From Streptomyces sp. Edi2 (GTDB lineage Bacteria > Actinomycetota > Actinomycetes > Streptomycetales > Streptomycetaceae), in NCBI RefSeq assembly GCF_040253635.1, contig NZ_JBEJGX010000003.1:8705501-8769500 (forward strand): a DNA stretch of 64,000 bases, read 5' to 3'. The position numbers and the translations under genes are program-made. Numbering within the stretch: position 1 is the first letter of the stretch; each line of letters starts with the position of its first letter. Below the pieces are notes generated by a model. It saw only the letters and a program-made list of their open reading frames with translations, had not been told where the DNA came from and made no database searches. This document shows positions 25,770 to 32,830 of this stretch, piece by piece.

Positions 25770-26858
25770 ATGTCTGCAGCTTCGAGCGTGGCCGCCCAGG
25801 CCGCTGCGAACGGAAAGCCGTCCGCCGAGGACGAGTCCCCGATCCACATTCTCTGGATCAACGCCGGCCTGAGTTGCGACGGCGACTCCGTGTCGCTGAC
25901 CGCAGCGACCCAGCCGAGCATTGAGGAGATCGCGCTCAGTGTGCTGCCGGGGCTGCCCAAGGTTGCCGTCCACTGGCCACTGATCGACTTCGAATGCGGC
26001 CCGGTCCAGGGCGCGGACAATTTCATCGAGTGGTTCTTCAAGGGCGAGCGCGGCGAGATCGACCCGTTCGTGCTGGTCATCGAGGGATCCATCCCCAACG
26101 AATCCATCAAGCCCGAGGGCTACTGGTGCGGTTTCGGTGACGACCCCGAGACCGGCCAGCCGATCACGACCAGTGAGTGGATCGACCGGCTCGCCCCCAA
26201 GGCGCTCGCCGTGGTCGCCATCGGCACCTGCGCCACGTACGGCGGTATCCATGCGATGGCGGGCAACCCGACCGGAGCCATGGGCGTGCCCGACTACCTG
26301 GGCTGGGACTGGACCTCCAAGGCCGGGATCCCGATCGTCTGTGTGCCCGGCTGCCCGATCCAGCCGGACAACTTCTCCGAGACGCTGGTCTACCTGCTCT
26401 ACCAGGCGGTGGGCTCGGCCCCGATGATCCCGCTGGACGACCAGCTGCGCCCCACCTGGCTCTTCGGCGCGACCGTGCACGAGGGCTGCGACCGCGCCGG
26501 CTACTACGAACAGGGCCAGTTCGCCACCACCTACGACTCGCCCAAGTGTCTGGTGAAGCTCGGCTGCTGGGGTCCCGTGGTCAAATGCAACGTGCCCAAG
26601 CGGGGCTGGATGGACGGCATCGGCGGCTGCCCGAACGTCGGCGGAATCTGTATCGCCTGCACCATGCCCGGCTTCCCCGACAAGTTCATGCCGTTCATGG
26701 ACGAGCCGCCCGGCGGCAAGCTCTCCAGTACCGCCAGCGCCGCGTACGGCAGTGTCATCCGCCGGCTGCGGGACATCACGGCCAAGACCGTCGATCACGA
26801 GCCCAAGTGGCGCCACCGCGGCGACCAACTGACCACCGGCTACCGGAAACCGTGGTGA
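25770..26858 (+). CDS. hhyS: [NiFe]-hydrogenase small subunit, group 1h (group 5)
   Basis: 362 residues. Carries the iron-sulfur relay that takes electrons from the HhyL active site. The protein lacks the Tat signal peptide found on most uptake small subunits, a known trait of group 1h enzymes. Near the N-terminus INAGLSCDGDSVSLTAAT has a single Cys (36) with Asp37/Asp39 where ordinary hydrogenases have CxxC; a Cys3Asp proximal cluster is known for this group. Other ligand regions are AIGTCATYGGIHA, VPGCPIQPDNF, VHEGCDRAGYYE, CLVKLGCWGPVVKCNVPKRGW and GICIACTMPGFPDKF. AGGAG 8 nt before the ATG. First gene of the hydrogenase operon; oxidises atmospheric-level H2 during starvation in characterised streptomycetes. 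Confidence 0.95.
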   Translation: MSAASSVAAQAAANGKPSAEDESPIHILWINAGLSCDGDSVSLTAATQPSIEEIALSVLPGLPKVAVHWPLIDFECGPVQGADNFIEWFFKGERGEIDPFVLVIEGSIPNESIKPEGYWCGFGDDPETGQPITTSEWIDRLAPKALAVVAIGTCATYGGIHAMAGNPTGAMGVPDYLGWDWTSKAGIPIVCVPGCPIQPDNFSETLVYLLYQAVGSAPMIPLDDQLRPTWLFGATVHEGCDRAGYYEQGQFATTYDSPKCLVKLGCWGPVVKCNVPKRGWMDGIGGCPNVGGICIACTMPGFPDKFMPFMDEPPGGKLSSTASAAYGSVIRRLRDITAKTVDHEPKWRHRGDQLTTGYRKPW

Positions 26859-26944
26859 GCGCACCCCGCCCGTAGCCGTCCGGCTCCTTCCGGACCTCCG
26901 TCCGACCTCACTTCCGCGCGCAACAGAAGGGCACGGCACTCACG

Positions 26945-28729
26945 ATGGCACCGAAGACGAAGGCGGCCGGTGACGGCAGCGGTCTGACGGAGATGTCCTG
27001 GGATCCGATCACCCGGATCGTGGGCAGCCTCGGCATCCACACGAAGATCGACTTCAAGCAGAAGCGGGTGGCGGAGTGCTACAGCACCTCCTCCGTCTTC
27101 CGTGGCTACAGCGTCTTCATGCGGGGCAAGGACCCGCGTGACGCGCACTTCATCACCAGCCGGATCTGCGGTATCTGCGGTGACAACCACGCCACGTGCT
27201 CCGTCTACACGCAGAACATGGCCTACGGCGTGAAGCCCCCGCACCTGGGGGAGTGGATCATCAACCTCGGCGAGTCCGCCGAGTACATGTTCGACCACAA
27301 CATCTTCCAGGAGAACCTGGTCGGGGTCGACTACTGCGAAAAGATGGTGCGCGAGACCAACCCCGGCGTGTGGGAACTCGCCCAGCGCACCGAGGCCCCG
27401 CACGCGGCTGAGCACGGCTACCGCACCATCGCCGACATCATGAGCTCCCTCAACCCCCTGGAGGGCGAGTTCTACCGGGAGGCGCTGCAGGTCAGCCGCT
27501 ACACCCGGGAGATGTTCTGCCTCATGGAGGGCCGCCATGTGCACCCCTCCACGCTCTACCCGGGCGGCGTCGGCACCATCGCCAGCGTCCAGCTCTTCAC
27601 CGACTACCTCAGCCGGCTGATGCGCTACGTGGAGTTCATGAAGCGCGTCGTCCCGCTCCACGACGACCTGTTCGACTTCTTCTACGAGGCGCTGCCCGGA
27701 TACGAGGAGGTCGGCCGGCGGCGGGTGCTGCTGGGCTGCTGGGGGGCGCTCAACGACCCCGACCACTGCGACTTCACCTATCGCAACATGACGGACTGGG
27801 GACGGAAGATGTTCGTCACCCCCGGCGTCATCGTCGACGGCAAGCTGGTGACCAACGACCTCACCGAGATCAACCTCGGCATCCGGATCCTGCTGGGCAG
27901 CTCCTACTACCAGGACTGGGAGGGCCAGGAGCTGTTCGTCACCCACGACCCGCTCGGCAACCCCGTCGACCCGCGGCACCCGTGGAACCAGCACACCATC
28001 CCCGCGCCGCAGAAGCGGGACTTCAACGACAAGTACAGCTGGGTGATGTCCCCGCGCTGGTTCGACGGCAACGAGCATCTGGCGCTGGACACCGGCGGCG
28101 GCCCGATCGCCCGCCTGTGGTCCACCGCGCTGTCCGGGCTCGTCGACACCCCGTACGTCAAGGCCACCGGCCACAGCGTCACCATCGACCTGCCGCGCAG
28201 CATGACCAAGCCCGAGGCCCGCTTCGAATGGAAGATCCCCAAGTGGAGCAACGCGCTGGAGCGTAACCGCGCCCGCACCTACTTCCAGGCGTACACGGCG
28301 GCCATGGCACTGCACTTCGCCGAGCAGGGGCTCGAAGAGGTCCGGGCCGGACGCACCCAGACCTGGGAGAAGTTCGAGGTGCCCGACGAGTCCATCGGCT
28401 GCGGCTTCACCGAGGCGGTACGCGGTGTGCTCTCGCACCACATGGTCATCCGGGACGGGAAGATCGCCAACTACCACCCGTACCCGCCCACCCCGTGGAA
28501 CGCCAGCACCCGCGACACCTACGGCACCCCGGGCCCGTACGAGGACGCCGTGCAGAACACCCCGATCTTCGAGGAGAACTCCCCGGAGAACTTCAAGGGC
28601 ATCGACATCATGCGCACCGTGCGCAGCTTCGACCCGTGTCTGCCCTGCGGCGTCCACATGTACGTCGGAGACGGCAAGTCCGTACAGAAGATGCATGTGC
28701 CCACCGGCCTGAGCGGGTTGTCGGGATGA
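26945..28729 (+). CDS. hhyL: [NiFe]-hydrogenase large subunit, group 1h (group 5)
   Basis: 594 residues. Holds the NiFe(CN)2CO centre. L1 motif RICGICGDNHATCS gives Cys75 and Cys78; L2 motif SFDPCLPCGVH gives Cys565 and Cys568. The 23 residues after His571 should be removed by the maturation protease once nickel is in, so the precursor is unprocessed as encoded. Other typical parts are DPITRIVGSLGIH at the N-terminus and VGTIASVQLFTDYL. It follows hhyS by 86 bp and its stop overlaps the next start (ATGA), so expression of the accessory gene is coupled. Cytoplasmic or at the inner membrane face. Confidence 0.96.
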   Translation: MAPKTKAAGDGSGLTEMSWDPITRIVGSLGIHTKIDFKQKRVAECYSTSSVFRGYSVFMRGKDPRDAHFITSRICGICGDNHATCSVYTQNMAYGVKPPHLGEWIINLGESAEYMFDHNIFQENLVGVDYCEKMVRETNPGVWELAQRTEAPHAAEHGYRTIADIMSSLNPLEGEFYREALQVSRYTREMFCLMEGRHVHPSTLYPGGVGTIASVQLFTDYLSRLMRYVEFMKRVVPLHDDLFDFFYEALPGYEEVGRRRVLLGCWGALNDPDHCDFTYRNMTDWGRKMFVTPGVIVDGKLVTNDLTEINLGIRILLGSSYYQDWEGQELFVTHDPLGNPVDPRHPWNQHTIPAPQKRDFNDKYSWVMSPRWFDGNEHLALDTGGGPIARLWSTALSGLVDTPYVKATGHSVTIDLPRSMTKPEARFEWKIPKWSNALERNRARTYFQAYTAAMALHFAEQGLEEVRAGRTQTWEKFEVPDESIGCGFTEAVRGVLSHHMVIRDGKIANYHPYPPTPWNASTRDTYGTPGPYEDAVQNTPIFEENSPENFKGIDIMRTVRSFDPCLPCGVHMYVGDGKSVQKMHVPTGLSGLSG

Positions 28730-32151: not shown

Positions 32152-32732
32152 ACGCCGAAGCGCCGGTCACCGGACCACCGGTCGCCGGACCACCCGCCAA
32201 GACCCTGATCGCCGGCGTCGGCAATATCTTCCTCGGCGACGACGGATTCGGTGTCGAGGTCGTACGACGGCTGGGCGAACACCGGCTGCGGGACGGGGTC
32301 GAGGTCGTCGACATCGGCGTACGCGGAGTGCATCTGGCCTACCAGATGCTGGACGGCTACCACACGGTGCTGCTGGTGGACGCCTCCGCGCGCGGCGCCG
32401 AACCCGGCACCGTCCACCTCCTCGACGCCACCGCTCCGGCCGGCGCCCGCCCCCACGACACCGCGCTCGACGGTCACCACATGACTCCCGACACCGTGCT
32501 CGCGCTGCTCGACACCCTCAGCGCGGGGACCGACGGCCGGCGCCCGGAGCGCGTCTTGGTCGTCGGCTGTGAACCCGCCGATGTCGCCGAGGGCATCGGG
32601 CTCAGCGAACGGGTCGACGCCGCGGTCGACGAGGCCGTGGGGCTGATCCTGCGGCTGGTCGGCACGGCGGAGCCGGCACCGGCCGCCGCCGCACCGCACA
32701 CCAGTGATGAGAGGAACACGACACCATGCTGA
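32148..32732 (+). CDS. hydrogenase maturation endopeptidase (HupD/HycI family)
   Basis: 194 residues. Cuts the C-terminal extension from nickel-loaded HhyL. The family motif GVGNIFLGDDGFGVEVVRRL (residues 23-42) supplies a metal-binding Asp (31), EVVDIGVRGVHLAYQMLDGYHTVLLVDA gives the second Asp, and the HHMTPD segment the His ligand; VLVVGCEPADVAEGIGLSE is also typical. The GTG start overlaps the previous gene by 4 nt; its own 3' end overlaps the microprotein gene by 7 nt. A Pro/Ala/Thr tail after residue 170 is unconserved. Confidence 0.9.
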   Translation: MNAEAPVTGPPVAGPPAKTLIAGVGNIFLGDDGFGVEVVRRLGEHRLRDGVEVVDIGVRGVHLAYQMLDGYHTVLLVDASARGAEPGTVHLLDATAPAGARPHDTALDGHHMTPDTVLALLDTLSAGTDGRRPERVLVVGCEPADVAEGIGLSERVDAAVDEAVGLILRLVGTAEPAPAAAAPHTSDERNTTPC

Positions 32733-32830
32733 AGCTCGCCCTGGGCGGAGCGCTCGCCGCCACGCTCGCCGTTGCCCTCAAGGCCGTACTGCCCGACGTC
32801 AAGCGCTATTTGCGCATCCGGTCCATGTGA
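32726..32830 (+). CDS. 34-residue microprotein (DUF6893-like) ending the hydrogenase operon
   Basis: Translates to MLKLALGGALAATLAVALKA then VLPDVKRYLRIRSM. An amphipathic or membrane-inserting helix (residues 2-22) is followed by a basic tail with Lys/Arg clusters, so it could tether to the inner membrane face. AGAGGAA lies about 8 nt before the ATG, and the start is inside the protease gene. I recall the small DUF6893 family from streptomycete hydrogenase loci; the role, perhaps membrane association of the complex, is inference. Confidence 0.72.
   Translation: MLKLALGGALAATLAVALKAVLPDVKRYLRIRSM

What the first reader, a model, noticed from the sequence alone, without database searches (positions are those of the whole stretch)
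25770..32830. Hydrogenase operon carrying four overlapping accessory genes of unknown role
hhyS-hhyL are followed by a NifU-like, a DUF5947-like, a DUF6084-like and an unassigned 473-residue gene, then the protease and a 34-residue microprotein. Five successive 4-nt stop/start overlaps plus one 7-nt overlap make this a translational-coupling chain, so the products are probably made in fixed ratio. Hydrogenase biogenesis needs no such set by textbook accounts (Hyp proteins and the protease suffice); these genes are the best candidates in the window for an undescribed part of atmospheric-H2 oxidation, such as cluster supply, electron shuttling or a stalk/anchor.
Basis: partly seen in the sequence, partly recalled or inferred. 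Interest (0 to 1): 0.75.

Follow-up and report, generated by a model that had tools for sequence, protein, structure and literature searches.

The report
Air-hydrogenase operon and its membrane microprotein
This Streptomyces operon encodes an enzyme of the kind that lives off traces of hydrogen in air, with its dedicated helper proteins and a conserved 34-residue membrane peptide that could be the enzyme's missing membrane anchor.

Summary
The operon is the standard group 1h [NiFe]-hydrogenase block, shared with Cupriavidus necator pHG1, where the four genes are published as PHG066-069 of unknown function. So the four are known of; HhyE, the first, is published as needed for H2 uptake.

In 236 Actinomycetota genomes, DUF5947 (23), DUF6084 (23) and the 473-residue protein (24) lie only at group 1h loci or, where contigs break, beside protease/hyp genes. 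Among 72,556 plasmids, DUF5947 and the 473-residue protein occur in exactly the 12 records with group 1h HhyL. The reverse rule leaks.

The new point is the microprotein (DUF6893): one predicted transmembrane helix ending RYxxxxxM. Of eight operon products it alone has a membrane-grade stretch in the four loci checked, it recurs in distant loci, and five gene tables omit it. A 2026 paper says no anchor of group 1h hydrogenases is known.

Best reading: genes 1-4 are a cytosolic assembly module and the microprotein is the membrane tether. Both roles are inferred.

The parts
25770..26858 (+). hhyS, hydrogenase small subunit; no Tat motif seen, no membrane-grade stretch
   Evidence: Pfam PF14720, PF01058; hydropathy max 1.45 over 19 aa
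26945..28729 (+). hhyL, group 1h large subunit
   Evidence: PF00374; 77.9% identical to C. necator H16 HofG; only match of its kind in its genome
28726..29337 (+). g1, short HhyE homologue (NifU-like), without the C-terminal Rieske-like domain, CxC instead of CxxC
29334..30002 (+). g2 = DUF5947 (C. necator PHG067 by gene order); invariant C34, C37, H46, H48, C59, C61, C64
   Evidence: PF19372 234 bits; model pLDDT 89
29999..30733 (+). g3 = DUF6084 (PHG068 by gene order); no conserved cysteine
   Evidence: PF19562 324 bits; not modelled
30730..32151 (+). g4, 473-aa protein (PHG069 by gene order): N-terminal helices, beta-rich body, C-terminal SH3-like barrel (about 385-473)
   Evidence: no Pfam or NCBIfam match; model pLDDT 79.8
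32148..32732 (+). hydrogenase maturation protease
   Evidence: PF01750, TIGR00072 over cut-off
32726..32830 (+). 34-aa microprotein (DUF6893): one predicted transmembrane helix, basic tail
   Evidence: PF21833 46.9 bits; hydropathy 2.02
32957..33337 (+). hypA, start of the maturation gene group that follows
   Evidence: PF01155
33341..34252 (+). hypB
   Evidence: PF02492; TIGR00073 over cut-off

Best explanation
This is the dedicated accessory block of a group 1h (atmospheric-H2 type) hydrogenase. Shown: the genes are a conserved unit tied to hhyL. Inferred: HhyE, DUF5947, DUF6084 and the 473-aa protein form a cytosolic assembly module that helps build or pair HhyS and HhyL (HhyE as a NifU-fold platform, DUF5947 as a metal-binding finger protein, DUF6084 and the 473-aa protein as scaffolds without redox cysteines); the protease then matures HhyL. 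Inferred: the microprotein is the membrane tether. Its helix sits in the membrane and its conserved basic tail, most likely cytosolic, docks the soluble HhySL core near the menaquinone pool.
For: Unit. Assembly: loss of HhyE abolishes Hhy staining and the artificial acceptor NBT does not bypass it (PMC6883350), which fits assembly better than electron transfer. HhyE's cysteine pair is canonical in 31 of 106 loci and its Rieske-like domain is seen in 21 of 108, while DUF5947 keeps CxxC-HxH-CxCxxC in 102 of 103 loci, the one miss cut by a contig start (a few loci are duplicates of one another). Tether: of the eight operon products, only the microprotein exceeds 1.8 in 19-aa hydropathy in the window, C. 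necator, M. intracellulare and Methylocystis. Of 72 named loci, 67 have a membrane mini-ORF at the protease end; all 67 end RYxxxxxM, and no other such mini-ORF lies there on either strand (chosen by length and hydropathy only). C. necator has it (DUF6893, 38.9 bits), and Methylocystis has one by motif, not by Pfam. DUF6893 is over cut-off in 18 of 25 accessory-bearing genomes and in 3 of the other 211 (with 44-46). Tail pN/pS 0.43, helix 1.05 (65 sequences). A 2026 paper states no anchoring subunit is known; another ties membrane association to affinity.
Against: C. necator has the microprotein, yet its enzyme is described as cytoplasmic and low-affinity (citing Schafer 2013). No microprotein was found in L164 and L166 nor in the divergent loci L054 and L055; the variant clade has only a related small membrane protein. 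It stays beside protease and hyp genes where structural genes are decayed or not found (G143, G174), which a maturation role would also explain. Three copies are not adjacent to a hydrogenase gene: two on short contigs of G169 and one in G089, about 3.6 kb upstream of hhyS on the other strand. The 65 sequences of the pN/pS test were chosen with a motif filter, so Y and the last M are invariant there by construction. There are no localisation data and no structure of the complex. Fold matches of the accessory proteins are weak. Methylacidiphilum has group 1h activity without homologues of the accessory genes known from others.
Confidence: 0.47

Rival explanations
1. Electron relay: HhyE and/or DUF5947 are iron-sulfur carriers that take electrons from HhyS and pass them to menaquinone.
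For: Published hypothesis for HhyE, and for PHG067 (the DUF5947 position) as acceptor (PMC6883350). DUF5947 has five invariant Cys and two invariant His. The C-terminal domain of long HhyE matches Rieske ferredoxins.
Confidence: 0.27
2. The microprotein is a maturation or quality-control factor (for example for the protease or Hyp proteins) rather than an anchor.
For: It usually sits at the protease gene, in mycobacterial-type loci between the 473-aa gene and the protease, and remains beside protease/hyp genes in decayed loci. A second copy lies by hypF/hypD in G193.
Against: It was not seen in 12 loci of the roughly 45%-identity hydrogenase clade (L056-L066, L071; one unrelated regex hit in L057), 9 of which show a protease match. 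In L167 it follows DUF6084 with no protease or Hyp gene match in the locus.
Confidence: 0.3
3. Translational coupling fixes the ratio of the products as subunits of one complex.
For: Five overlaps, all kept in 62 of 72 loci.
Against: Overlaps are lost at one or more junctions in 10 of 72 loci and spaced differently in C. necator. Such overlaps are ordinary in high-GC operons, and the crystallised C. necator enzyme held only the two hydrogenase subunits (both recalled).
Confidence: 0.1

Closest known systems
C. necator H16 actinobacterial hydrogenase operon (hofK-hofG, PHG066-069, PHG070)
   Same: Same gene order: small, large, NifU-like, DUF5947, DUF6084, long hypothetical, protease; an unlisted DUF6893 microprotein follows the protease
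   Different: NifU-like protein has no cysteine pair; enzyme reported cytoplasmic and low-affinity
M. smegmatis Hhy with HhyE (MSMEG_2718) and MSMEG_2717
   Same: HhyE corresponds to g1 by position and NifU-like domain; MSMEG_2717 is said to resemble PHG067. The M. smegmatis sequences themselves were not fetched
   Different: Mycobacterial-type HhyE (L032, L044, L045) has an extra Rieske-like domain that the window protein lacks
HucM of the Huc hydrogenase (group 2a)
   Same: Operon-encoded membrane-associated partner of a high-affinity hydrogenase (PMC10017518 passages)
   Different: HucM has 188-189 residues and forms a tetrameric stalk; the microprotein is one helix of about 32-40 residues; sequence relation not tested
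HoxO/HoxQ/HoxR/HoxT/HoxV accessory set of the C. necator membrane-bound hydrogenase
   Same: Dedicated helpers encoded in a structural operon
   Different: No similarity in the seven profile-to-single-sequence pairs compared, a weak test

Membership tests
Group 1h [NiFe]-hydrogenase | Large subunit in the group 1h clade | tested here: met
   63-97% identity to other HhyL of this type, the next clade falling to about 45%; 77.9% to C. necator
Group 1h [NiFe]-hydrogenase | Small subunit without Tat signal or membrane helix | tested here: met
   N-terminus and hydropathy read
HhyE | NifU-like domain | tested here: met
   Aligns over the domain; profile matches NifU structures; the window protein alone has no Pfam hit
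HhyE | CxxC in the NifU-like domain | tested here: not met
   Window has CxC
HhyE | C-terminal domain with two CxxC | tested here: not met
   Window protein ends before it; it fits the 'truncated HhyE' form of PMC6883350. Filed as a short HhyE homologue, not as a full HhyE
DUF5947 (PF19372) | Pfam cut-off 25 bits | tested here: met
   234.4 bits
DUF6084 (PF19562) | Pfam cut-off 25 bits | tested here: met
   324.1 bits
DUF6893 (PF21833) | Pfam cut-off 24.6 bits | tested here: met
   46.9 bits
Zinc-finger fold like ribosomal 4v9f chain U (for DUF5947) | Matching fold and metal ligands | tested here: inconclusive
SH3-like barrel (for the 473-aa protein C-terminus) | Matching fold | tested here: inconclusive
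HucM-type stalk | Stalk subunit of about 190 residues | tested here: not met
   Microprotein is 34 residues; works-like claim only
Cytochrome b hydrogenase anchor | Multi-helix haem protein | tested here: not met
   34 residues with one hydrophobic stretch

The most novel reading that the evidence does not exclude
The DUF6893 microprotein is the long-missing membrane subunit of group 1h hydrogenases: one helix plus an RYxxxxxM tail that pins HhySL to the membrane, lets it feed menaquinone, and so sets the high affinity for atmospheric H2. It has been overlooked because it is too small to be annotated. In the Streptomycetaceae variant clade a sister form with tail PxLxRExRIWRM does the same job.
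Probability: 0.4. Interest if true: 0.82.

Novelty: new variant of a known kind. Interest (0 to 1): 0.64.

Why it matters
Soil bacteria that scavenge atmospheric H2 are its main sink, and group 1h enzymes are a main route. How these enzymes, which have no helix of their own, reach the membrane is stated as open in a 2026 paper, and membrane association has been linked to their high affinity. A conserved, operon-encoded, single-helix protein turns that question into a one-gene deletion. The DUF5947 metal motif, and the loss of HhyE's cluster ligands in most loci, also shift the search for the accessory roles from HhyE to DUF5947.
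Full report
OBSERVATION. Pfam and NCBIfam name the hydrogenase subunits, the protease, HypA and HypB, and Pfam names DUF5947, DUF6084 and DUF6893; the NifU-like and the 473-aa protein have no family match of their own. The genome gives one match to HhyL. The closest listed relative of the 473-aa protein is from Streptomyces lydicus (97%; 7,909 relatives, best 120 listed).

THE BLOCK IS CONSERVED AND ALREADY KNOWN OF. C. necator H16 pHG1, a Mycobacterium intracellulare plasmid, Methylocystis parvus and Kitasatospora carry the same order: small, large, NifU-like, DUF5947, DUF6084, long hypothetical, protease. 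In print, C. necator PHG066-069 are four open reading frames for proteins of unknown function (PMC4377017, passage); a 2026 Rhodococcus paper speaks of four hypothetical proteins in the cluster (PMC13332983, passages); a methanotroph paper describes four such CDS (PMC12319191, passages); conserved hypotheticals hhaABC are named in the Thermomicrobium operon (PMC6776052, passages). HhyE was deleted in M. smegmatis: Hhy activity staining was lost and restored by complementation, and NBT did not bypass the loss (PMC6883350; abstract, introduction, methods, results and discussion read). In the held library no paper names DUF5947 or the three Pfam accessions, one names DUF6084 (an aurodox biosynthesis paper; listing only), and none names DUF6893.

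In the same 236 Actinomycetota genomes: HhyL at 63% identity or more, fragments included, in 27 (my count from the matches listed); DUF6084 in 23; DUF5947 in 23; the 473-aa family in 24. The union of the last three is 25 genomes. Of these, 23 have group 1h HhyL; in the other two (G169, G194) a contig end cuts the block, and protease and hyp genes follow. I read the loci of these 25: none has the genes away from a hydrogenase locus. Of the 27, four lack all three: G104 (decayed locus), G164 (hhyL stops at about residue 321), G125 (a 73-residue fragment) and G200 (contig end). Among 72,556 plasmid records, HhyL at 73% or more is in 12; DUF5947 and the 473-aa protein are in exactly those 12 and DUF6084 in 10 (tblastn, E up to 1e-5). 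The two without DUF6084 are Streptantibioticus records; one of them (L034) and the genomes G123 and G162 were read and form a variant with the 473-aa gene upstream of hhyS and no DUF6084. Twelve loci of the next hydrogenase clade (about 45% identity; L056-L066, L071, some cut by contigs, two genomes twice) have none of the three. In 80 named loci, 72 have all seven genes; six are cut by contigs (L102, L104, L127, L133, L155, L160), L157 has a shortened 473-aa gene and no protease, and L167 lacks the 473-aa gene and protease nearby.

THE MICROPROTEIN. Scanning for small membrane ORFs near the protease, without a motif, gave 15 ORFs in 13 of the 20 loci that had a protease call; 14 of the 15 end in RYxxxxxM, including C. 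necator and Methylocystis. A second motif-free test on named loci: 72 with a protease and enough sequence, 67 with a membrane mini-ORF at the protease end, all 67 ending RYxxxxxM; no other such mini-ORF on that strand and none on the other. With a motif scan it is in 69 of 72, and L168 makes 70; L164 and L166 lack one by these criteria. In the first 25 group 1h loci (L031-L055) the motif scan found it in 15; of the ten misses three are the variant clade, four are cut by contigs (L039, L047, L048, L053), one is decayed (L037) and two (L054, L055) are real misses. In 21 copies aligned, R, Y and the last M are invariant (Y was part of the search pattern, R could have been K or Q, M was free). DUF6893 genome search: 26 matches over cut-off in 21 genomes; 19 at an hhy operon (G145 on a separate contig that carries its protease end), 3 beside hyp or protease genes of decayed or other loci (G143, G174, G193), 3 not adjacent to hydrogenase genes (G169 twice on short contigs, G089 about 3.6 kb upstream of hhyS), 1 a partial stretch in a long frame (G198). 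The variant clade has, just after DUF5947, a small membrane protein with tail PxLxRExRIWRM in all three loci read. The gene tables shown for L031, L032, L033, L035 and L170 list no gene at the microprotein (with 51, 56, 126), but those tables are incomplete by the tool's own statement.

WHY A TETHER. In Methylacidiphilum the group 1h subunits have no signal peptide or transmembrane helix, yet activity is membrane-associated, and the isolated enzyme has lower affinity (PMC7174314, passages). [quoted passage not shown] In the window, C. necator, M. intracellulare and Methylocystis, the microprotein is the only one of eight operon products with a membrane-grade hydrophobic stretch. Its basic tail should face the cytosol by the positive-inside rule (recalled). 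Against this stand the cytoplasmic C. necator enzyme, the absence in some loci and the retention beside maturation genes in decayed loci. Methylacidiphilum lacks homologues of accessory genes known from others and has two other membrane hypotheticals in its operon, which would fit a replaced anchor.

VERDICT. The four genes are a real, dedicated and already noticed block. What this study adds is a specific candidate for the missing membrane partner, testable by a single deletion, and the pattern of kept and lost metal ligands in HhyE and DUF5947.

Noticed in passing
L031, L032, L033, L035, L170 (gene upstream of hhyL): The gene tables name the hydrogenase small subunit HhyS 'hydrogenase expression protein HypE' in all five annotated plasmid loci read; PMC13332983 notes the same for R. 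equi. A naming error that propagates.
   Followed up: no
L034, L050, L051: A second hhy lineage in Streptomycetaceae: 473-aa gene upstream of hhyS, no DUF6084, different small membrane protein after DUF5947.
   Followed up: partly
L082 (G143), L075 (G104), L157: Decaying hhy loci: hhyS internally deleted with microprotein, protease and hyp genes kept (G143); hhyS and hhyL fragments only (G104); 473-aa gene cut short with no protease (L157).
   Followed up: partly
L084 about 2158-2250; L087 about 10045-10137: DUF6893 copies not adjacent to a hydrogenase gene, with a different tail (PDFQRYxQLRDM), so the family may have a second role.
   Followed up: partly
L046 7327-7446 and 8259-8375: One locus carries two different microprotein genes.
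   Followed up: no
L048, L049, L052, L073, L079: The C-terminal SH3-like barrel of the 473-aa protein lies in a separate small frame.
   Followed up: partly
L032 15862-19731: Complex I genes (nuoA-F, the last cut) directly follow the hhy cluster on a Mycobacterium intracellulare plasmid.
   Followed up: no
L170 1-2046: A xanthine/carbon monoxide dehydrogenase-type gene set lies a few kb upstream of hhyS on the S. fungicidicus plasmid, on the other strand.
   Followed up: no
24728-25549 (window): ORF with a lipoprotein-like signal (LTAC) upstream of hhyS; not tested against any library.
   Followed up: no
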